Shown here one piece after another: positions 2,753-44,789 of a stretch of DNA of 45,555 nt. The first letter of the stretch is position 1. Each line of letters starts with the position of its first letter. The DNA comes from a virus. Location of the stretch: positions 1 to 45,555 of the IMG/VR virus record IMGVR_UViG_3300022208_000008; one strand, 5' to 3'. The notes under the pieces are model-generated. The model made no database searches and had not been told where the DNA came from. It was given only the letters and a program-made list of their open reading frames with translations. The position numbers and the translations under genes are program-made.

Positions 2753-3411
2753 TTCGTAATTCCCCATTGCTCAGCCATAGCATTTGCAATCCCTTGATAA
2801 GTTCGGCTACGTTCTTTCCACCTATCAGGCGACGGTGCAAGTTTGTTTTGTCCGCTGTCGCATTGGTTGCCCCACCGTGGCCGTGCCACTTTCTCACCGT
2901 TGCAGTCCTGGCATCCGTATTTATCTCGGCTTATAACTTCCGCCCCGCAGCACACCAGTCGAGGCTCGACGAAGGCCGTAGGTTTGAGCAATGGCAGCCC
3001 CTTGAGCCAAAGGCAGGTTTTTTTACTTGCATCGTCACCAAACTGATATGGGTTTACAATCTGGTCAGGCTTGCGAATACGTGACGAAATCACACTCACG
3101 GGGTTTTCAATCGCGATCCGCTTAATCGTAGCATCCATAAGGCGCTGTACAAATGCCACCGCGTCCTCTGTTAGTTGCGGGTCACGCAGCCCTCGCGTTG
3201 TCCAGTGCATCCCGCTCACACTCAGGTATGTGCAAGGAGGGTGAGCAATCATCAAATCCCATCCATCGTCTATGATATCGAAAATATCTCCATGATAATG
3301 AGGCCCCGGTCTTTCGGTAGGCTCTAAATCACAACTCACAGCATTATGGCCTTTAGCTATGAAAGCGTCTCTAACTATCCCGCTATATTCGCATGCTATT
3401 AGAACATCCAT
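2749..3411 (-). CDS. Cytosine-C5-methyltransferase-like phage protein
   Basis: The order of motifs fits a shortened C5 DNA methylase fold: VLIACEYSGIVRDAFIAKGH (SAM-binding motif I), DLMIAHPPCTYLSVSG (PPC motif carrying the catalytic Cys) and IAIENPVSVISS (ENP motif). The C-terminal part has Cys pairs (RLVCCGAE, KYGCQDCNG) that may bind zinc; no clear target-recognition domain is visible, and at 220 residues it is much shorter than M.HhaI-type enzymes. AGGAGG precedes the ATG at 3411; a longer frame to 3471 is unlikely. It could methylate phage DNA against host restriction; no specificity can be assigned. Confidence 0.75.
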   Translation of the reverse strand: MDVLIACEYSGIVRDAFIAKGHNAVSCDLEPTERPGPHYHGDIFDIIDDGWDLMIAHPPCTYLSVSGMHWTTRGLRDPQLTEDAVAFVQRLMDATIKRIAIENPVSVISSRIRKPDQIVNPYQFGDDASKKTCLWLKGLPLLKPTAFVEPRLVCCGAEVISRDKYGCQDCNGEKVARPRWGNQCDSGQNKLAPSPDRWKERSRTYQGIANAMAEQWGITK

Positions 3412-3412
3412 C

Positions 3413-4147
3413 TCACAACCTCCTTGGCTCTGGCATCTTTGGTTCGGGCTTCGGTAAATATCTAGGGTCAACCGGCTTTTCGTTTAGGTATGACTCAAAC
3501 TTCGGGCTAAACAACGTCTCTGGCCGTAGGTAGGCATTCATTTTTGGGTCATGCTTCCATTGGGCTACTTTGTTATCAATAACCTTTTTGAAGTCGTCAA
3601 GGGTAAAGCCTTCGTTTATCCTGGCTATGATCTTGTCTCTGGTTGCCTTGCTGCTAGACTTAAAGTTTTTCTCAGTCTTTAAATTAAGATATTCGATTGC
3701 ACCGGTTATAATTTCTTTTGTAGTATTATCTTTTGTAAGAGTTTCTTTTGTGGTTAAGGTTTTCCTTAACGGTTCTTTCGAAATACTTGAACGGTCATTT
3801 CGTTTTTCCTTAACGGTTAATGTTTTCCTTGACGGTATATCCCATTCCTTTAAGTACTTATTAAATATGTATTTCTTGGTTAGACCGTTAATGTTTTCCT
3901 TAACCGTTAATATTTTCTTTAACTGTAGAGAATTAATCACTTGTGAAGCCCTAGTCTTAGAAATGTTTAACGCTTCTTGAAATTGGCTCAAGGCAATATA
4001 ATCTTCCTTCTTGCCATATCCATAGGTCTTTCTTATCACGTATAAAGCAGCGCTCATCTCCTGCCCGGAAAGATTGATTCTTATCAAGGCTTCCAATATC
4101 TCATTGGCAATCCTTGTATGACCGTTTTCAAGTTGTGGGTTAGCCAC
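3413..4147 (-). CDS. Replication initiator, O-like N-terminus with phage C-terminal domain
   Basis: The N-terminus NPQLENGHTRIANEILEALI matches the winged-helix domain of phage replication protein O, which binds origin iterons. The C-terminus (GAIEYLNLKTEKNFKSSSKA, then RINEGFTLDDFKKVIDNKVA, WKHDPKMNAYLRPETLF) matches a widespread phage domain linked to DnaD-like initiators. The linker is low-complexity and repeats KTLTVKE-type units, because the DNA underneath carries iteron-like repeats. GTG start with AAGGA upstream, overlapping the HNH stop by 8 bases. It should bind the origin and load the DnaB-type helicase encoded downstream, as in lambda O/P systems. Confidence 0.88.
   Translation of the reverse strand: MANPQLENGHTRIANEILEALIRINLSGQEMSAALYVIRKTYGYGKKEDYIALSQFQEALNISKTRASQVINSLQLKKILTVKENINGLTKKYIFNKYLKEWDIPSRKTLTVKEKRNDRSSISKEPLRKTLTTKETLTKDNTTKEIITGAIEYLNLKTEKNFKSSSKATRDKIIARINEGFTLDDFKKVIDNKVAQWKHDPKMNAYLRPETLFSPKFESYLNEKPVDPRYLPKPEPKMPEPRRL
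3759..3926. repeat. Iteron-like repeats inside the initiator gene, candidate origin
   Basis: Five related copies of TTTTCCTTAACGGTTA occur at about 3759-3774, 3802-3820, 3821-3839, 3892-3910 and 3911-3926. Neighbouring copies are spaced about 19-20 bases apart, and the flanking DNA at 3640-3760 and 3850-3890 is AT-rich. Lambda places its origin iterons inside gene O in the same way, so this is the best candidate for the replication origin. The repeats also encode the KTLTVKE-like peptides of the linker; selection on the peptide is an alternative but less likely explanation. Confidence 0.65.
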
Positions 4148-5777: not shown

Positions 5778-5812
5778 ATCGCTAGCGGTAGGTATATTAG
5801 AATGTTATGCCT
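5778..5812 (+). repeat. Weak attC-like remnant
   Basis: On the plus strand a small self-complementary CGCTAGCG is followed by AGAATGTTATGCC. The GTTATGC end is also found after the gene at 6155-6424 and resembles an R' core site, but no convincing R'' or L'' box is present. It lies just past the stop codon of the 100-residue gene. Listed because of its place in the array; it may be chance. Confidence 0.25.
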
Positions 5813-6113
5813 ATTTCGGCTCTTCTATCCGTGTAAACTCAAATTTATTTTTATCTAAATTACACGCCCCACTAATACCGAAACGGTATAAATTACCGCC
5901 TAGTATTCTCACAACTTCCCATCCATATCTTGATTTATCGTTAATCCAATAATGGCCGTTAGGCATAACACCACAATCCAGGGCGACCTCCGCCCCCTCG
6001 GCTGTTTTGGCGATAAGGTCGTCAATAGCTATCCCAGCATTCATTATATCAACTCCGTCATACTCTCCCGACTTCAATCTTGCTCGTAGTGCTTTCAACT
6101 CTTCTACGTCCAT
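5811..6113 (-). CDS. Hypothetical protein, 100 aa
   Basis: Starts MDVEELKALRARLKSGEYDG after GAGGAGACAGGAAG. An N-terminal helix is followed by a beta-rich half (VALDCGVMPNGHYWINDKSR, YGWEVVRILGGNLYRFGI) that looks like a small barrel domain. No catalytic motif seen. Member of the accessory array; its 3' end is followed by GGCATAAC, the reverse complement of a GTTATGC core. Function unknown. Confidence 0.72.
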   Translation of the reverse strand: MDVEELKALRARLKSGEYDGVDIMNAGIAIDDLIAKTAEGAEVALDCGVMPNGHYWINDKSRYGWEVVRILGGNLYRFGISGACNLDKNKFEFTRIEEPK

Positions 6114-6116
6114 CTT

Positions 6117-6163
6117 CCTGTCTCCTCTAGGGGCGAAGGCCCCTGATTTTTATGTTATGCTTC
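6117..6163 (+). repeat. Weak attC-like hairpin (degenerate)
   Basis: Plus strand CTAGGGGC-GAAG-GCCCCTG forms a perfect short hairpin and is followed by ATGTTATGC, so the L'-R' half resembles an attC site. No R'' box is visible 5' of the hairpin. The TTA within GTTATGC is the stop codon of the minus-strand gene at 6155-6424, the same arrangement as at the two better sites at 6.5 and 6.8 kb. Could also act as a weak terminator hairpin. Confidence 0.35.
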
Positions 6164-6424
6164 TATGTTGAGTTTTTTTCTAATTTGGGCAACTCTTTTT
6201 TCTCTTCGCTCCTGCTTGTTGACAAGATCAGAGAATCCACGAACTCCGCAAGAGGGGCAGCAAGTACCTCCATTTTCCCAAAAATCACGCTCTATTTCAG
6301 ATAAAAGATCATTATCTTTTTCAATTCTACTCTCAAGGTTTATTAATTCTTTTTTAAGAGGAGACATTGGTGCTTTTTTGAACTTTATATTTGACATTAG
6401 GCGCCACATTTTTTTTACAAACAT
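6155..6424 (-). CDS. Hypothetical protein with single zinc knuckle, 89 aa
   Basis: Contains a long charged helix (KKELINLESRIEKDNDLLSE) followed by GGTCCPSCGVRGFSDLV, a Cys-Pro-x-Cys knuckle, and a basic C-terminus (KQERREKRVAQIRKK). AAGGA lies 9 bases before the ATG at 6424. The gene sits between the attC-like site at 6447-6502 and the degenerate one at 6117-6163, so it has the shape of a gene cassette whose frame runs opposite to the attC orientation. Function unknown. Confidence 0.7.
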   Translation of the reverse strand: MFVKKMWRLMSNIKFKKAPMSPLKKELINLESRIEKDNDLLSEIERDFWENGGTCCPSCGVRGFSDLVNKQERREKRVAQIRKKLNIEA

Positions 6425-6446
6425 AATCTCTATTCCTTAGTAAAAC

Positions 6447-6502
6447 GCATAACCCCACATTCGAGCCGACCGTGTACCACGGCGCTCAATTTATTGTTAT
6501 AA
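6447..6502 (+). repeat. attC-like site A (integron recombination site candidate)
   Basis: Plus strand order: R'' ATAACCC, then L'' ATTCGAGCCG, a loop CACGG/CCGTG, L' CGGCGCTCAAT, and R' GTTATAA. L'' and L' pair (ATT-GAGC with GCTC-AAT) with an extra C in L'', the asymmetry that gives attC sites their extrahelical base. TAAC and GTTA ends pair. The TTA of R' is the stop codon of the 63-residue minus-strand gene to its right. About 56 bases, the size of short attC sites. Confidence 0.6.
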
Positions 6503-6688
6503 AACTCTATATTCTCTATAGAGGTTCTCTAAACTTCCGTTTATTCTAAATTCAAGTTTTCCAGCATCAACTAACCTATCCAACATATAAGTGGCCCGCC
6601 TTAAATGGATCGTATCCCATTTAGTAAACCACTTGTCTTTTGGGCACTTTTTCATGGCATTTTCTAATGCCTTGGTCATCTTAATCAT
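6497..6688 (-). CDS. Small winged-helix-like protein, 63 aa
   Basis: Starts MIKMTKALENAMKKCPKDKW and continues TIHLRRATYMLDRLVDAGKL, then EFRINGSLENLYREYRVL. The helix-helix-wing layout with DRLVDAGKLEFR resembles a small winged helix-turn-helix. GGAGG is 8 bases before the ATG at 6688; a longer frame to 6772 runs back through the attC-like site and is not real. It is enclosed by two attC-like sites and reads opposite to them. DNA binding is a guess from the fold. Confidence 0.7.
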   Translation of the reverse strand: MIKMTKALENAMKKCPKDKWFTKWDTIHLRRATYMLDRLVDAGKLEFRINGSLENLYREYRVL

Positions 6689-6716
6689 TTTAAGTACCTC
6701 CGTAAGGTAAACGTTT

Positions 6717-6786
6717 GATAACCACACGGTCGAGAGCGCCTGCGGCTCGGATGGCCTGCGGCCACCGCTCACCTGGGCGTTAAGTG
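6717..6786 (+). repeat. attC-like site B (integron recombination site candidate)
   Basis: Plus strand: R'' GATAACC, L'' CGGTCGAGAGCG, a structured centre (CCTGCGG...CCGCAGG-like and GGCC repeats), L' CGCTCACC, and R' GCGTTAAGT. GTTAAGT fits the GTTRRRY core consensus exactly. L' pairs with L'' only if extra bases in L'' bulge out (GGT-C-GA-GAGCG), as in real attC sites. The TTA of R' is the stop codon of the minus-strand gene to the right. About 70 bases. Confidence 0.62.
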
Positions 6787-7049
6787 GCTCTCACTTTAAC
6801 TGGCTGCATTGAAAGCCCACTCACAGCATATCCATAATCTTTCATTTCCATTTCTACCTTTACTCTTTTCCCGTCATACATGATTTCAATGCTCATGTAG
6901 TCTTCGTCCCTGGTGTTAGAGGTTACTCGGCTAATTGTAATTTTGCCACTTAACCCTTCACTCAAGGCCGAGTTGCTGCCACGGTTGTCACCATAAACAG
7001 TAAGCTCTCTGCCTATCATTTTCATGTCACGATCTGTATTTGTTTCCAT
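6780..7049 (-). CDS. Hypothetical beta-rich protein, 89 aa
   Basis: Starts METNTDRDMKMIGRELTVYG after AAGGAGG; an in-frame TTG two codons earlier is less likely. Short charged N-terminus, then alternating strands (SGKITISRVTSN, YMSIEIMYDGKRVKVEMEMK). No motif recognised. Its stop codon is formed by the R' core of attC-like site B, so if that site is real this gene is the next cassette in the array, in reverse orientation. Confidence 0.68.
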   Translation of the reverse strand: METNTDRDMKMIGRELTVYGDNRGSNSALSEGLSGKITISRVTSNTRDEDYMSIEIMYDGKRVKVEMEMKDYGYAVSGLSMQPVKVRAT

Positions 7050-7079
7050 CCGCAACCTCCTTAGTTTTTAGTTGTGCGC

Positions 7080-7304
7080 CTAATTGTTTCTATCCAATCC
7101 GGCCTTTGTCCATCCTGCCATCCAATTCCAATGTACTTCGCTATTTTCATCTCGGTAAGGGTTTTGCCCTACTTTAAGCCCTTGCATATGAGCAGCATAT
7201 CCCATTTGATAGGCTCTTAATTTTTGCGAACCCGTCGCACAACCCGCCGCTGCACTCGGACTGGCGTCCTCGTCCGTTCTCCTACTTGGGTCTGGGTTTG
7301 CCAT
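7080..7304 (-). CDS. Ribosome modulation factor-like protein, 74 aa
   Basis: The second half reads AYQMGYAAHMQGLKVGQNPY, then a Trp-rich end, WNWMAGWTKAGLDR. This matches the RMF pattern (A-Y/H-x2-G-Y-x-A-x3-G ... NPY ... W-x2-G-W), a family that inactivates ribosomes by dimerisation in bacteria; CrpP-like plasmid proteins share it. The N-terminal 30 residues are polar and possibly disordered. Strong GACGGAGGATAAT site before the ATG. In a phage it could act on host ribosomes or be a carried cassette gene; neither is shown here. Confidence 0.7.
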   Translation of the reverse strand: MANPDPSRRTDEDASPSAAAGCATGSQKLRAYQMGYAAHMQGLKVGQNPYRDENSEVHWNWMAGWTKAGLDRNN

Positions 7305-7308
7305 ATTA

Positions 7309-7362
7309 TCCTCCGTCAGTTAGGTTTCCCCACCGCCAGCGCGGTGAGCTTTTCGTTATACT
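7309..7362 (+). repeat. Hairpin with partial attC resemblance
   Basis: Plus strand CCCACCGC-CAGC-GCGGTGAG forms a good stem and is followed by CTTTTCGTTATAC, like an L'-R' half. The left end has GTTAGG in direct rather than inverted orientation, so the site fails the attC rule at R''. TTA of CGTTATAC is the stop codon of the DUF1064 gene, as at the other sites. Weak candidate. Confidence 0.3.
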
Positions 7363-8767: not shown

Positions 8768-9516
8768 TTCTTTTTCCCTCTTTCTTTGGCTTTGAGAGCG
8801 GCCAAGGCTTTGTTGAAATCGGGGGCCTTTATCTGGTCAAGTTCCTCAGCTCCGATATATTTAAGGAACTGCCGAAGATCAGCCCCCGTGCTTTCGATCC
8901 ATTCATTCAGGATGATGATTTGCTCATCTGAAATGTAATCGATGCCAGCCGCCCCGTCATCATCTTCATGGGTTGCAAGGCCGGTCAGTGACAGAATCGT
9001 ATACCGTTCCAGATATGTCACCGTTGACCCTACGGCCTGGATTGAGTTTTTGTTTCCAGAATTGTCCGGGCTGGCGTTCAACGTAGTGCTTTCCGAATGG
9101 CCGAGAATATGGGTGATCTTGCAGGTGACAAAGATTTTCTCTCCTTCCTGCTTTGTTTCCCAAGCCGCCGATAAACCGTGCTGGCTCAATGCCGAACTGA
9201 TCTTTTCAGTCACGTTTGCGAGGGTAGCATGGCGATAATTTGTCCGGCCCTTCTGCGATGTGTAGTCAACCTTCGCATCCTTGTTGATCTTCGGCGGATT
9301 GGCTTTGAACTTCGCCATCGCAACATGGTAAGCTTTCTTTGCCTCATTGCGCTCGAATCGCTCCTGAAGTTCCATCATCTTTTCGATCTGTTCAACCCCG
9401 GCCCCTTTGTCGATGGCATATTTAAGAATGCTCTCCATCGTCTGCGGGACGCTTGCATGTGTAGAAACCTCATGCCTTGCTGTTAATGCAAGGTCTTTTT
9501 GCTCTGGATGATCCAT
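8764..9516 (-). CDS. erf: ERF-family single-strand annealing protein
   Basis: ERF family: the core KKAYHVAMAKFKANPPKINK, then TNYRHATLANVTEKISSALS, HGLSAAWETKQEG and VGSTVTYLERYTILSLTGL are characteristic. These proteins form rings on ssDNA and anneal complementary strands, helping genome circularisation and recombination. 250 residues. AAGGAGGAAGTCA precedes the ATG. The partner exonuclease is encoded next with a 4-base overlap. Confidence 0.92.
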   Translation of the reverse strand: MDHPEQKDLALTARHEVSTHASVPQTMESILKYAIDKGAGVEQIEKMMELQERFERNEAKKAYHVAMAKFKANPPKINKDAKVDYTSQKGRTNYRHATLANVTEKISSALSQHGLSAAWETKQEGEKIFVTCKITHILGHSESTTLNASPDNSGNKNSIQAVGSTVTYLERYTILSLTGLATHEDDDGAAGIDYISDEQIIILNEWIESTGADLRQFLKYIGAEELDQIKAPDFNKALAALKAKERGKKK

Positions 9517-28020: not shown

Positions 28021-29355
28021 TTAGATTGTGAGTTTCCCAGTGATTTTGACCTTGTGAACCGCCCCGGCCAGTTGCGCCACGAACGAAATCCCCTGAAGGA
28101 ACCTTGCCGCCTTGTCTACCGGATCGATTGCCGAGAGTTTCGGCACCGTTACCGTGATTGCGTCCGGCTCGTCGCTCAAGAATCCGCTATTGACGGCCCG
28201 CTGAAGTCTTGCCCTCAGAGGCGCTTCGACCTTTGCAATCCCATTCGTAGTGAAAGGGATCTTCTGGGAGTTGATAAGGACCGTGAAGATATCCTCCCCA
28301 ATCCTGGCCGTCAGTTCATCCGATCCCCTCATCACGTCGATATACTCACCGCTTGCCACGACGGCCTCAGAGGTGATGCAGTTGACATTTGCCACCGTCT
28401 CATAGAAGTTGAGATTCTTGGCCTTGAGATTGACGATGGCGCTGTCAGAAAGGAGAGTATCAGGGACAATCCCTACAAGGCTCTTGAACTTCCATGTGAT
28501 GCTTCCTGCATCGTAAGGGGCGCAAGCGCCGACCCATGCCGCATCGGGATAGTTCTCCTCATCGCCAGAATACATCCCGATTGACCGGTCATAGAGCTTG
28601 GTTTTGAGGACCGACCCTATATCCGTCGTTGCCGCCGTCAGCATACTTGCCTGGTCGATGGCGTAGAAGTATAGCTTCGGAGTGCTGAGAGCTTCGATGA
28701 AGTCGGCGGCCTGTTCGATGTCAAGAAGCTGTTCGGCCTCGGTTGCCCTCCTGGTAAGGATGAGGAAGTACCAATCCGTCGCCCCGGCGGCAATCGCATC
28801 GGCAAGCTCGGTCGATACGCAAACATTTGCCACCACATTTGCAAGCGTCAGATTTGTGCCCGCTATGATGGTATTGATCTCACCTGCAACATCTGCATCA
28901 AGGTCGAACGTTCCATCAATATTATCAGTTGCCGTCACTGGCTCAGACCCACCATTGATCGCAGCCACAAGACCGGCGGCAATTTCCAGATTCGTCGCGC
29001 TTGCATCGGATAGGAAAGAAAACGCCGTTCCGTTGATCGTCACGGTGTAAGTCGTGTCGTTCAGGACCGTCGAAACCGTTACCAGATCGCTTTGGGCGAC
29101 GTTTGCGGCCCTCTTCCCAATGATGACCTTTTCGGGGCTCAGTTCCTGGGAGAAGTACTTTGCAGCGGCCTTGTACTCCTCGTCGGTAATGGCGAAGTCT
29201 TCCAGCACAGATTCGATGCTGGTATAGGTCTTGTACTCCTCGGCAAACTTAGAGTGGATGCCGAAAATGAGTCCAGTACCGAACCCGGCCCGCGTAATCC
29301 TTGCTGTCTCCCGTGTGATGTCTACCTGAATGATATCCCTTATCTTCGTACCCAT
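28021..29355 (-). CDS. Tail sheath protein (DUF3383-like)
   Basis: 444 residues. N-terminus IRDIIQVDITRETARITRAG, TGLIFGIHSKFAEEYKTYTS and EDFAITDEEYKAAAKYFSQE; C-terminus RLQRAVNSGFLSDEPDAITV, then AARFLQGISFVAQLAGAVHK. These are sheath hallmarks. A domain at about 70-160 (YTVTINGTAFSFLSDASATN ... GSEPVTATDNIDGTFDLDAD) resembles one in the cement protein. It contracts to drive the tube into the cell. Confidence 0.92.
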   Translation of the reverse strand: MGTKIRDIIQVDITRETARITRAGFGTGLIFGIHSKFAEEYKTYTSIESVLEDFAITDEEYKAAAKYFSQELSPEKVIIGKRAANVAQSDLVTVSTVLNDTTYTVTINGTAFSFLSDASATNLEIAAGLVAAINGGSEPVTATDNIDGTFDLDADVAGEINTIIAGTNLTLANVVANVCVSTELADAIAAGATDWYFLILTRRATEAEQLLDIEQAADFIEALSTPKLYFYAIDQASMLTAATTDIGSVLKTKLYDRSIGMYSGDEENYPDAAWVGACAPYDAGSITWKFKSLVGIVPDTLLSDSAIVNLKAKNLNFYETVANVNCITSEAVVASGEYIDVMRGSDELTARIGEDIFTVLINSQKIPFTTNGIAKVEAPLRARLQRAVNSGFLSDEPDAITVTVPKLSAIDPVDKAARFLQGISFVAQLAGAVHKVKITGKLTI

Positions 29356-35942: not shown

Positions 35943-35999
35943 TTATAACCCTTCAATCCATTCGACCGCTATCGCGGCGTCTGATTTCTCCCGTTAGGG
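35943..35999 (+). repeat. attC-like site C, left of the plus-strand cassette
   Basis: Plus strand: R'' TTATAAC, L'' CCATTCGACCGC, loop TATC, L' GCGGCGTCTGAT, R' CGTTAGGG. GTTAGGG fits the GTTRRR part of the core. L'' and L' pair with mismatches. It abuts the MuF start codon on the left and the small plus-strand gene on the right, whose ATG is 8 bases from the R' core. Confidence 0.6.
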
Positions 36000-36006
36000 T
36001 AATCAT

Positions 36007-36393
36007 ATGAATCCATTTCACCATCTTCTAAAGGAATTCGGAAAACACAAACGCAAGTTGCAGTTGATAGCAGCCATACTATCAGTAATAACTCTCCCAA
36101 GGTTAATACCTCAAGAATGGTGGGGACACTGGCTATTATCATGGTCAATATCGAGCCGATACATACTACATATAGCAATTGCACTACTGTTGTTGGGATA
36201 TGCCGCTCTTTCACGAATCTACTCCTTGGATAAGCAATTAAAAAGAATTAAGGAAAATTCCACCCGATTAATATTAACGCCAGAAGAACAAGCTGATATT
36301 GCTAAAATAAGAATCGGCCATTTATTTCGATTCATCGATCATTTTATTAACGGCGACAAAAAATCATCCAATGAAACTAAAAAGCTACCCTAA
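36007..36393 (+). CDS. Plus-strand small membrane protein in a cassette-like segment, 128 aa
   Basis: The only convincing plus-strand gene. Starts MNPFHHLLKEFGKHKRKLQL, has two membrane helices (residues about 18-35 and 48-72, LHIAIALLLLGYAALSRIY) and a polar C-terminal half (LTPEEQADIAKIRIGHLFRF, then IDHFINGDKKSSNETKK). Codon use is AT-richer than neighbours. Its TAA overlaps R'' of attC-like site D. The topology resembles small superinfection-exclusion or toxin-type membrane proteins, but I recognise no family. A minus-strand frame (36214-35969, good ribosome-binding site) overlaps; I judge it secondary. Confidence 0.68.
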   Translation: MNPFHHLLKEFGKHKRKLQLIAAILSVITLPRLIPQEWWGHWLLSWSISSRYILHIAIALLLLGYAALSRIYSLDKQLKRIKENSTRLILTPEEQADIAKIRIGHLFRFIDHFINGDKKSSNETKKLP

Positions 36394-36450
36394 CCCTTCA
36401 TTCAAGGGCGACCGTCGCGTAGCTCCGTCGCCTTAATTTGTTCGTTACCT
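36388..36450 (+). repeat. attC-like site D, right of the plus-strand cassette
   Basis: Plus strand: R'' CCCTAAC, L'' ATTCAAGGGCGAC, loop, L' GTCGCCTTAATTTG, R' TTCGTTACC. It closely resembles classic attC sites (TAAC...TTCAAG...GCTTAA...CGTTA). L''/L' pair GGCGAC with GTCGCC, and L'' TTCAAG versus L' TTAA leaves an unpaired C. The stop codon of the preceding gene lies in R'', as in real gene cassettes. 63 bases. Confidence 0.65.
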
Positions 36451-41455: not shown

Positions 41456-42229
41456 TTAGTTAAAGGTCAAACTGAATTGCTCATATTTCGTGTTGACTTC
41501 TTTTATGCCGCACTTGTCTGGGCACCTATAGCAATCACCGAAATATACATCATTGTTTAAACTTGGGTATGAATTACTACCTAGAAAATCGGCTTTATAG
41601 ATATTGACCTTCCCCCCTGTTACTAGATGATGGCTCTTGTTCAATCTCAAGACATTATTTATCACGTCTTCATTGTTTAATAGCGCGTCTTGTCTCGCCT
41701 TTAATTTAGCATCTATGAAATCGCAAGAATTAACCCTCAATATGCTGCTGCAATACTTTTTCAGGTCTTGGTATTGAGCCAGCCTATATTCAATTAAATC
41801 ATCGCTATCTAAAGCCGATATTGACGTATTAACAACGATGCCGCCCAAATATGCCTTCTGGTTGTCGGTCAAAGCTGTCCAGTGCTTAGTGATAATTACT
41901 ATCTTGTCTTGATATGGCCTTATCTCGTTTATTATATCGATAGTATGCCCCCAATCACTCGACGGGTCACACATTATCCCAAGCCTTATGAAGATAAGTC
42001 TTTTTATCTCTTTCAATATTTCTCTTTTGTGCCAATACCCATCGAATTTGCGATATACAAGCCCGCTGAAATCGAATCCTTTTGACTTGGCTATCCTTGC
42101 GGCGTAGCAAACCCCATAACATCCATTCTCATTGTTTGCCATGCCATAATCGCAACCCTTGAATGGGTCAAGGCCCCAGACTCCCCTCTTTGATTGCGTC
42201 AAGGTTATTCTTTCGCTATACCGTGGCAT
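41456..42229 (-). CDS. Radical-SAM-like protein of the modification block
   Basis: 257 residues. Three Cys in GCDYGMANNENGCYGVCYAA (C26, C37, C41) resemble the iron-sulphur site of atypical radical SAM proteins, and the alternating strands and helices after it (LIFIRLGIMCDPSSDWGHTI, DKIVIITKHWTALTDNQKAY, GIVVNTSISALDSDD) suit a partial TIM barrel. A second Cys set (GDCYRCPDKCGIKE) lies near the C-terminus. TGATG couples it to the GNAT-methylase fusion. I infer a DNA-modification role; the cluster spacing C-x10-C-x3-C is not canonical. Confidence 0.62.
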   Translation of the reverse strand: MPRYSERITLTQSKRGVWGLDPFKGCDYGMANNENGCYGVCYAARIAKSKGFDFSGLVYRKFDGYWHKREILKEIKRLIFIRLGIMCDPSSDWGHTIDIINEIRPYQDKIVIITKHWTALTDNQKAYLGGIVVNTSISALDSDDLIEYRLAQYQDLKKYCSSILRVNSCDFIDAKLKARQDALLNNEDVINNVLRLNKSHHLVTGGKVNIYKADFLGSNSYPSLNNDVYFGDCYRCPDKCGIKEVNTKYEQFSLTFN

Positions 42230-43629
42230 CAAAGTCTTCCTATAGGTGGATAGAGGTCTTTTATTTTTTTCATATCGCCCTTATAGAACACTAATATTTT
42301 TTGTTCACGCTTCGGGAACTTCCTGTAATCAAGTGTCCTCTTTGCGTGGGCTAGCCTTGTAAACTCACATTCGAGATATGTAATCTTGTTGTAGATATGC
42401 AACCCCTGATCTCTGAAGAAAAGTTCATGCTCTGCCTCACAACCGTAATAAGCCCCGTTTTTATCTCTTGAGTCTCCGGTCATTATCACGAAAAAGCAAT
42501 TTTCATTAAGGTGTTCAATCCCCTTCTTATAACCCTTAAATAATGTATCTCGAAATTCATCGTATGATGGCATATCGTTTAGCTCTCCATCTGGTATTAT
42601 ACCATCATAATCAATATATTTCTCAACTTTGTAATAGGGAGGGCACGAAAAAACAAGGTCAAACATGCCGTCGGGATCGTATGTTGAACTATCACTTTTT
42701 ATCCATTTTGCGCTGTTTAGGTCCTGGCAAATTGCGTTATTAGCATCGCATTGATTCTGGCGTATCTCGCTGGCGATGTATTCATAGCCATATAATCCAG
42801 TGACAAAACCAAACTGAACCCCGCCCCCGAATGGGTTGTAGACCCTACGCCCTTTTGTCGGCATAAAAAAGCGAAGAATTACTTCACAGGCCACAGGATC
42901 AAGGACTGATGCGTTTCCGTTGAAAGATTTTCCCTTGTTATGCTTTACGTTTCCATCATCGTCTATCTCTTTGCTTGAAAGAACGACATTAGAAAAACCA
43001 TTCGACCCTTGCCAGCATCCATCACGCGATGCAAATTTGGGGTTGATTATCCCGTGCCTTTCTCCTGCCGCCTCTATCTTCTCGTTCCATTCTTTTTTCA
43101 TTTTGAGCCAGTCGGCCCGCGTCGTTGTCCATGCATTTGTCATAGTGGCGTGAGCCAGGCGTTTCATGCGGATTTGGTCGAAGGTTCCATATACCATATA
43201 TTCATATCCGCTTAGATTGAGATATGTCTCAAAACCTATGGCCCTAAATACACTTGGGCATTCAAGGTCATGCTTAGTGCTTACAGTCATAATCATCGGA
43301 TATCCGAATGCGTTTTGATTAATTATCTCTTTGACCATTCCACTGTATATTTCCTTGTTTTTTCTATCCAAAAGCATTGCCGACTGCAACAGGCAAAACT
43401 CTTTTGCTTCATGGTTGACTTGGTATGTAAAAAACCCGCTGAACTCATCATTTATCTTCAGGATGATTGCTGAATGAATTTGCATATTCTTTCTTGCCGC
43501 CCTATATGCAACCCCATCCTCAATCGCCAATTTTGCTACCTGGTCTTCATATCCTGACCCTATTACGCTATCAACCTGGATGAAATCTACCTTGTCTTCG
43601 TGTTTTTTGAACAATTCAACTTGCGCCAT
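42229..43629 (-). CDS. GNAT-like domain fused to DNA methyltransferase
   Basis: 466 residues. Residues 1-150 look like a GNAT acyltransferase fold (SAIILKINDEFSGFFTYQVN ... PSVFRAIGFETYLNLSGYEY; FRAIGFE is like GNAT motif B). Residues 230-460 are a phage DNA methylase of the type often found with ParB: VYNPFGGGVQFGFVTGLYGY (motif I), FDLVFSCPPYYKVEKY (motif IV) and HAKRTLDYRKFPKREQKILV (C-terminal motif). Adenine or cytosine target unknown. Strong AGGAGGAGAT start. The fusion with an acyltransferase-like domain suggests more than plain methylation. Confidence 0.72.
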   Translation of the reverse strand: MAQVELFKKHEDKVDFIQVDSVIGSGYEDQVAKLAIEDGVAYRAARKNMQIHSAIILKINDEFSGFFTYQVNHEAKEFCLLQSAMLLDRKNKEIYSGMVKEIINQNAFGYPMIMTVSTKHDLECPSVFRAIGFETYLNLSGYEYMVYGTFDQIRMKRLAHATMTNAWTTTRADWLKMKKEWNEKIEAAGERHGIINPKFASRDGCWQGSNGFSNVVLSSKEIDDDGNVKHNKGKSFNGNASVLDPVACEVILRFFMPTKGRRVYNPFGGGVQFGFVTGLYGYEYIASEIRQNQCDANNAICQDLNSAKWIKSDSSTYDPDGMFDLVFSCPPYYKVEKYIDYDGIIPDGELNDMPSYDEFRDTLFKGYKKGIEHLNENCFFVIMTGDSRDKNGAYYGCEAEHELFFRDQGLHIYNKITYLECEFTRLAHAKRTLDYRKFPKREQKILVFYKGDMKKIKDLYPPIGRL

Positions 43630-44427: not shown

Positions 44428-44451
44428 CTAATTACCCTCCTAATGCAAAAA

Positions 44452-44508
44452 TTATAACCAGCCAATCAACGCAGATGGCTTTCACTGCGTTCAATCCACT
44501 GGTTATTT
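44452..44508 (+). repeat. attC-like site E
   Basis: Plus strand: R'' TTATAACCAG, L'' AATCAACGCAG, short loop ATGGCTTTCA, L' CTGCGTTCAATCC, R' CTGGTTATT. TAACCAG pairs with CTGGTTA and AACGCAG with CTGCGTT, with mismatches between. A simple long hairpin is an alternative, and it is not followed by a T run on the minus strand strong enough for a terminator. 57 bases. Confidence 0.52.
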
Positions 44509-44515
44509 TATAGTT

Positions 44516-44716: not shown

Positions 44717-44789
44717 TAATAACCGCGCCGTAGAACCAGTCAGTAGAGTTCGACGCGCCAAGGCGCGCGTCTCACTTCAAGCGTTACCG
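44717..44789 (+). repeat. attC-like site F, overlapping the ParB stop
   Basis: Plus strand: TAACCGCGCC at the left, L'' AGTTCGACGCG, loop CCAAGG, L' CGCGTCTCACTTCAAG, R' GCGTTACCG. TCAAGCGTTA is nearly identical to the L'-R' end of classic attC sites. L''/L' pair through CGACGCG/CGCGTC. R'' is 20-25 bases further out than usual. The TTA of R' is the ParB stop codon. 73 bases. Confidence 0.55.

What the first reader, a model, noticed from the sequence alone, without database searches (positions are those of the whole stretch)
5778..7362. Array of small genes separated by attC-like sites, frames opposite to attC orientation
At 6447-6502 and 6717-6786 two hairpins have R''-L''-L'-R' order, an extra base in L'' and GTTRRRY-like cores (GTTAAGT is exact). 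Weaker versions lie at 5778, 6117 and 7309. Each R' core supplies the TAA stop codon of the adjacent minus-strand gene. Five small unrelated genes (including an RMF-like one) lie between them. A tandem cassette array carried by a phage, with reversed frames, would be unusual.
Basis: partly seen in the sequence, partly recalled or inferred. Interest (0 to 1): 0.8.

Follow-up and report, generated by a model that had tools for sequence, protein, structure and literature searches.

The report
Reverse-reading gene cassettes in phages
This virus of bacteria carries a row of small genes separated by the same DNA hairpins that bacteria use to swap antibiotic-resistance genes, but the genes read the opposite way; many other wild phages turn out to be built alike and use such rows for genes that resemble known tools against bacterial immunity.

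Summary
An attC model built only from 47 attC sites of bacterial and plasmid integrons finds five tandem attC sites on the + strand of the window (5963-6160, 6447-6502, 6716-6785, 6948-7077, 7237-7361; 17-43 bits; best score in shuffled windows about 9.5). All five array genes run antisense to attC, end in or next to a core, and three start inside an attC loop. A second attC pair (35943, 36388) brackets a conventional sense cassette.

No integron integrase is present. A pattern search found further phage contigs with attC arrays (168 sites in 17 records). There, SD-supported genes are antisense 85:3, against 7:32 in bacterial integron arrays. Antisense ORFs match 51 PHROG families, sense ORFs none; they include methyltransferases and Tad2-, Acb2/Tad1- and Lar-like proteins. 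One cassette is shared by two different phages with junctions at the G|TTA core.

Phage attC clusters are known (Qi et al. 2023). Reverse frames, starts inside the hairpin and anti-defence content appear undescribed in the literature I could search. Recombination itself was not tested.

The parts
5804..5810 (+). Orphan core GTTATGC at the left edge of the array; stop (TAG) of g100 follows directly. No attC found to its left.
   Evidence: sequence; no hit with loops up to 330 nt
5811..6113 (-). Cassette gene g100 (100 aa). ATG lies in the loop of attC 5963-6160; its first 50 residues are encoded inside the attC (arm peptide VALDCGVM). N-terminal part resembles a gene in another viral contig (L083, 66% over 32 residues).
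5963..6160 (+). attC with a long (about 149-nt) loop, R'' GCATAAC ... R' GTTATGC; bottom strand folds as attC at MFE
   Evidence: 42.6 bits; fold
6155..6424 (-). Cassette gene g89 (89 aa, CCPSC); stop TAA is the R' core of attC 5963-6160
6447..6502 (+). attC, R'' GCATAAC ... R' GTTATAA
   Evidence: 18.7 bits R1; 30.6 bits scanner; fold
6497..6688 (-). Cassette gene g63 (63 aa) with a good ribosome-binding site; stop TAA from R' GTTATAA
6716..6785 (+). attC, R'' TGATAAC ... R' GTTAAGT
   Evidence: 19.5 bits R1; 25.5 bits scanner
6780..7049 (-). Cassette gene g89b (89 aa); stop TAA from R' GTTAAGT; ATG inside the loop of attC 6948-7077; attC-encoded peptide NSALSEGLS
6948..7077 (+). attC with long loop, R'' ACTTAAC ... 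R' GTTGTGC
   Evidence: 17.4 bits
7080..7304 (-). Cassette gene, ribosome modulation factor-like (74 aa); stop TAG just after R' GTTGTGC; ATG inside the loop of attC 7237-7361; attC-encoded peptide PSAAAGC
   Evidence: PF04957 E 1e-5
7237..7361 (+). attC with long loop, R'' GCACAAC ... R' GTTATAC
   Evidence: 28.6 bits
7356..7664 (-). Flanking phage gene, DUF1064 / Holliday-junction-resolvase-like; stop TAA from R' GTTATAC
   Evidence: PF06356 E 1.6e-19, phrog_190 E 2.8e-30
35943..35999 (+). attC, R'' TTATAAC ... R' GTTAGGG (second locus, between head and portal genes)
   Evidence: 30.8 bits R1, E 8e-6; 36.0 bits scanner
36007..36393 (+). Conventional SENSE cassette ORF (128 aa, probable membrane protein); stop TAA lies in R'' of the next attC; about 39% GC against about 53% around it
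   Evidence: no relative in phages or plasmids
36388..36450 (+). attC closing the sense cassette, R' GTTACCT
   Evidence: 23.3 bits R1; 21.3 bits scanner
44730..44787 (+). Weak attC candidate next to the stop of a ParB-like gene
   Evidence: 14.0 bits R1; not found by the second scanner, so uncertain

Best explanation
The window is a contractile-tailed phage carrying an integrase-less integron cassette array (CALIN) in its early region. Each unit runs from one G|TT cut to the next: core, a small gene read right to left, its ribosome-binding site, and an attC. In three of five genes the start codon lies in the attC loop, so one attC arm is 5' leader and the other is coding. SHOWN by computation: the sites match attC in sequence, pairing and extra-helical base; their polarity; the antisense genes; the same architecture in relatives and many other phages; absence of intI in the records; one cassette shared by two other phages with junctions at the core. 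INFERRED: cassettes are moved by an IntI from the host or another element acting in trans on folded attC bottom strands, which here are the phage coding strand and so are exposed during replication and transcription. Because attC polarity fixes insertion orientation, phage-type cassettes would sit antisense to the promoter of a bacterial integron and bacterial-type cassettes antisense to phage transcription, keeping two partly separate gene pools. The arrays let phages exchange small accessory genes, several of which belong to anti-defence families. In the window itself the functions of four of the five genes are unknown.
For: attC identity: model from 47 attC of intI-bearing contigs and plasmid R388. 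Window hits far above shuffles. The scanner recovers three TJE1 sites, matching the three attC reported there, two of which IntI1 recombines. Clade: of 77 other viral records searched first, only the two closest relatives have credible hits; both have genes opposite to attC. Orientation: SD-supported antisense:sense 85:3 in 17 viral records, 7:32 in bacterial arrays, Fisher p 7e-20. 116 antisense ORFs match 51 PHROG families at E<=1e-5, 117 sense ORFs none. Anti-defence families: Tad2-like, Acb2/Tad1, Lar, N6/N4 and C5 methyltransferases. Hallmarks in array records. No intI. Cassette exchange: G099 2143-2520 and L199 8873-9250, 85% identical, different attC upstream, junction at AACGTTA.
Against: No recombination was observed for the window's sites, no close relative with an alternative array was found, and no bacterial integron with these cassettes is known. 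Several bottom strands do not fold as attC at minimum free energy. Several R' cores depart from GTTRRRY. The wider phage set was picked with one attC pattern, so prevalence is not measured. TJE1 has sense cassettes, so reverse frame is not universal in phages. Host unknown.
Confidence: 0.82

Rival explanations
1. Fossil attC: attC sites entered the phage long ago and were kept as intergenic hairpins (terminators or mRNA-processing sites); nothing moves now.
For: No integrase in the records; several cores degenerate; some sites fold poorly.
Against: L''/L' arms, extra-helical base and cores are kept in many unrelated phages. Units turn over between relatives: none of the window's array genes is found in G001 or G015. 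A whole cassette is shared with core-exact junctions.
Confidence: 0.2
2. Cassettes were inserted once by a host IntI into attG-like GTT sites at gene ends; the antisense genes are resident phage genes, not cassette cargo.
For: Four stops in the array coincide with GTTA; cargo families are phage-like; insertion at non-classical attG sites is known in bacteria (Loot et al. 2024, cited in PMC11023631).
Against: Gene starts lie inside attC loops, so gene and attC form one unit; the shared G099/L199 unit moved gene and core together.
Confidence: 0.1
3. Ordinary phage intergenic hairpins resembling attC by chance.
For: Minimum-free-energy folding alone is unimpressive for some sites.
Against: No shuffle score above 9.5 in 100 shuffles or 9.2 with longer loops, against seven window sites at 17-43; almost no hits in 1.16 Mb of other viral DNA; all seven on one strand.
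Confidence: 0.02
4. Assembly chimaeras: bacterial integron arrays joined to phage contigs.
For: All are metagenomic contigs.
Against: Frames are opposite to bacterial arrays; cargo is phage-type; the G015 virus is assembled twice at 99.99% identity; the L199 array recurs in L205 and L224; published circular genome MW202573 has the same layout.
Confidence: 0.03

Closest known systems
Phage CALINs (clusters of attC lacking an integrase), Qi et al. 2023, PMC9892861: TJE1, P12002L, PH101, MW202573
   Same: attC arrays without integrase in phage genomes; methyltransferase cassettes; five of six tested phage attC recombined by IntI1
   Different: TJE1 and PH101 are described with same-direction cassettes. 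I found no mention there of reverse frames as a class, of starts inside the attC hairpin, or of anti-defence content beyond methyltransferases. Here arrays reach 38 sites in one record. MW202573 has the reverse layout, unremarked in the parts of the paper I read.
Integron gene cassettes and sedentary chromosomal integrons
   Same: One small gene plus attC per unit, G|TTRRRY core, extra-helical base in L''
   Different: Bacterial cassettes usually read in attC direction (32:7 in my control) with a platform intI/attI; here no intI and genes read antisense
Cassettes inserted at attG sites outside integrons (Loot et al. 2024, cited in PMC11023631 and PMC12901181)
   Same: attC-dependent insertion outside an integron platform
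   Different: Reported for bacterial genomes; does not explain antisense genes starting inside the attC
[quoted passage not shown] PMC11014356, PMC9668308)
   Same: Unusual relative orientation of integron parts
   Different: There the integrase is reversed, not the cassette genes relative to attC

Membership tests
attC recombination site | R''-L''-L'-R' arms with AAC/GTT cores at the right spacing | tested here: met
   R1 and scanner; 5963-6160, 6948-7077 and 7237-7361 have long loops and needed the longer-loop scan
attC recombination site | Extra-helical base in L'' giving strand polarity | tested here: met
   Correct strand +21 to +36 bits, opposite strand -17 to -34 bits for four window sites
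attC recombination site | R' core GTTRRRY | tested here: inconclusive
   GTTAAGT fits; GTTATGC, GTTATAA, GTTGTGC and GTTATAC deviate by one or two bases
attC recombination site | Bottom strand folds with R and L boxes | tested here: inconclusive
   Seen at MFE for 5963-6160 and 6447-6502; not for the other five sites
attC recombination site | Recombined by an integron integrase | not testable with these tools
   needs an attC x attI assay
Integron gene cassette | Unit of one small gene plus one attC | tested here: met
   Units of about 283-342 bp, one gene each
Integron gene cassette | Gene reads in attC direction (usual, not defining) | tested here: not met
   Antisense in the 5.9-7.4 kb array; met for the 36007-36393 cassette
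Integron gene cassette | Moves with junctions at G|TT | tested here: inconclusive
   Met for a unit of the same type in G099/L199; no comparison available for the window itself
Complete integron | intI gene | tested here: not met
   No TIGR02249 match in the window; no PF00589 match
Phage CALIN | At least two neighbouring attC, no intI, in a phage genome | tested here: met
   Five attC in 1.4 kb; terminase, portal, tail sheath and DnaB present

The most novel reading that the evidence does not exclude
Phages keep their own, orientation-segregated pool of attC cassettes, rich in anti-defence genes, which a host integrase shuffles between infecting phages. The attC hairpin doubles as the translation-start module of many of these genes, and opposite polarity keeps phage and bacterial cassettes silent in each other's arrays.
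Probability: 0.4. Interest if true: 0.95.

Novelty: new variant of a known kind. Interest (0 to 1): 0.87.

Why it matters
If right, integron recombination is also a way for phages to exchange small genes, including anti-defence genes. It would mirror the defence genes that bacteria are thought to keep in their own cassettes (my own knowledge, not checked here). The reversed polarity suggests how two cassette pools could share one recombinase yet stay separate, which can be tested with a standard assay. A recombination site that also encodes the start of a protein is unusual in itself.

Tried and rejected
Rfam has no match. Single-strand folding cannot decide attC identity: the 6717 site is no better than shuffles. 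My first simple core/arm scanner was too unspecific. Close relatives of g89b, g63, g100 and g89 in viral contigs: none, or one fragmentary match each; g89b has none in the phage collection. The sense cassette protein has no relative in phages or plasmids. A shared 54-nt phage attC has no match in phage isolates or plasmids, so it gave no host clue. The large-terminase query alone found no clade members. Site 5778 was rejected and 44730 left open. P12002L and the two stretches of PH101 that I scanned gave no hit with my scanner, so it is biased to proteobacterial-type attC. The portal/head junction of G015 has a different small gene, so no clean empty site could be shown for the 36007 cassette.

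Full report
What the window is. G000 is an IMG/VR virus record of 45,555 bases. It encodes a large terminase, portal, head-morphogenesis protein, tail sheath, baseplate proteins, DnaB helicase and endolysin, nearly all on the minus strand. The finding lies in the early region between a NinB-like gene and DUF1064, SSB and exonuclease genes.

Testing the attC claim without circularity. I fetched 80 bacterial contigs bearing an integron integrase and plasmid R388. From them I took 47 attC sites and built a covariance model, R1. No window sequence went in. R1 finds window sites at 35943-35999 (30.8 bits, E 8e-6), 36391-36447 (23.3), 6716-6785 (19.5), 6447-6502 (18.7) and a weak one at 44730 (14.0), all on the + strand. 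A separate pair-plus-PSSM scanner trained on the same sites gives 36.0, 21.3, 25.5 and 30.6 for the first four and nothing else above 11; 100 dinucleotide shuffles reach 9.5 at most. In 1.16 Mb of other viral sequence it hits only the closest relative and three sites in Tetrasphaera phage TJE1, where three attC were published and two of them shown to recombine with IntI1 (PMC9892861).

The full array. Allowing loops up to 150 nt adds 5963-6160 (42.6 bits, the best site in the window), 7237-7361 (28.6) and 6948-7077 (17.4); 24 shuffles reach 9.2. The array is then regular, with R' cores at 6154, 6496, 6779, 7071 and 7355. Genes g89, g63 and g89b, and the flanking DUF1064 gene, take their TAA stop from a core; g100 and the RMF-like gene stop with TAG 1-3 nt after one. 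The starts of g100, g89b and the RMF-like gene lie inside the attC loops, so 50, 34 and 22 residues of these proteins are encoded by attC sequence. The bottom strand of 5963-6160 folds as attC at minimum free energy, as does 6447-6502; five others do not.

The second locus. At 35943-36450 two attC bracket ORF 36007-36393, which reads in attC direction and ends in R'', as in a textbook cassette. Its GC is about 39% against about 53% around it, and it is the clearest + strand gene in a minus-strand head/portal region. The related phage G015 has a different small gene there. It looks like a captured bacterial-type cassette (inference).

Relatives. Of 77 other viral records searched with R1, only the two nearest relatives, G001 and G015, have credible hits; a 19-nt match in G028 looks spurious. 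G015 shares the structural genes at roughly 55-75% amino-acid identity. In both, genes oppose attC and a stop TAAC sits in an R' core. G015 and G030 are the same virus at 99.99% identity from different samples.

A wider class. A pattern drawn from the window and G001 sites found 26 viral contigs; 23 carry attC by R1 and none has an integron integrase. I searched 17 array-bearing records for hallmarks (a set that overlaps, but is not identical with, the 17 used for the frame count): 11 have a terminase, and one more a weak portal match. Between neighbouring attC, ORFs with a Shine-Dalgarno motif are antisense 85, sense 3, both 11, neither 35 in 17 viral records. In the bacterial control they are sense 32, antisense 7, both 11, neither 19 (shorter loop limit). 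Fisher p is 7e-20. Independently of ribosome sites, 116 antisense ORFs match 51 PHROG families at E<=1e-5 and 117 sense ORFs match none. This settles which strand is coding. Of the 96 SD-supported antisense ORFs, 68 stop in or next to the core, 26 start inside the hairpin and 58 start just before R''.

Cargo. Antisense cassettes include N6/N4 and C5 DNA methyltransferases, a Tad2-like protein (G086 9040-9291), an Acb2/Tad1 hairpin protein (G081 3238-3459), a Lar-like restriction-alleviation protein (G088 28727-28966), an RNA ligase and other phage families. Anti-defence function is inferred from family membership only.

Mobility. G099 2143-2520 and L199 8873-9250 share one HNH-gene unit at 85% identity. 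The upstream attC differ, and the match begins at AACGTTA, the recombination core. The two arrays are otherwise largely different. This is comparative evidence for exchange of reverse-frame units between phages.

How it probably works (inference). The attC bottom strand is the gene-sense strand here, exposed as single-stranded DNA in replication and as the non-template strand in transcription. A host or mobile IntI could use it. Since attC polarity fixes insertion direction, a phage-type cassette would land antisense to a bacterial integron promoter and a bacterial-type cassette antisense to phage transcription. That predicts two cassette pools that share a recombinase but are silent in each other's arrays.

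What is known. Phage CALINs were reported by Qi et al. 2023. They note divergent attC and multiple ORFs in some phages; I saw no description of reverse frames or hairpin starts in the parts I read. Their phage MW202573 shows the reverse layout in its own GenBank annotation. Further literature queries found nothing on such arrays. The library holds open-licence papers only and no preprints, so priority is not proven.

Limits. The class was sampled through one attC pattern. All array-bearing phages here except MW202573 are metagenomic IMG/VR contigs. My orientation call rests on ORF, ribosome-site and family evidence, not expression. No host is known and no recombination was measured.

Noticed in passing
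window 5811-6113; L083 566-661: The attC-loop-encoded N-terminal half of g100 is 66% identical over 32 residues to part of a gene in an unrelated viral contig where the scanner finds no attC, suggesting that attC starts can fuse protein modules.
   Followed up: partly
A4 proteins from L225-L253, L199, L217; window g89b (6780-7049): Thirteen of 96 viral cassette proteins, and window g89b, carry an N-terminal L-S-E-G-L-G-type peptide that is the translation of the attC L''-R'' arm.
   Followed up: partly
G015 (L176) about 41681-42666 of the record: The large terminase gene of G015 is split by roughly 1 kb (a possible intron or intein).
   Followed up: no
G081, G086, G088, G100 terminase genes: The terminase match in each of these array-bearing phages runs over one in-frame TAG or TGA: stop reassignment, intron or frame break.
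   Followed up: no
KX853513 Rctr41k, L089 4680-5678: A virus from a DAMO enrichment encodes an integrase 45% identical to IntI1; no attC was found by R1 in the 17.6 kb looked at.
   Followed up: partly
window 44445-44515: Strong inverted repeat with paired AAC/GTT ends, attC-like in outline but with paired spacers and no model hit.
   Followed up: partly
G101 (L225-L227): 58.5 kb phage contig with 38 attC-like sites in several blocks on both strands.
   Followed up: partly
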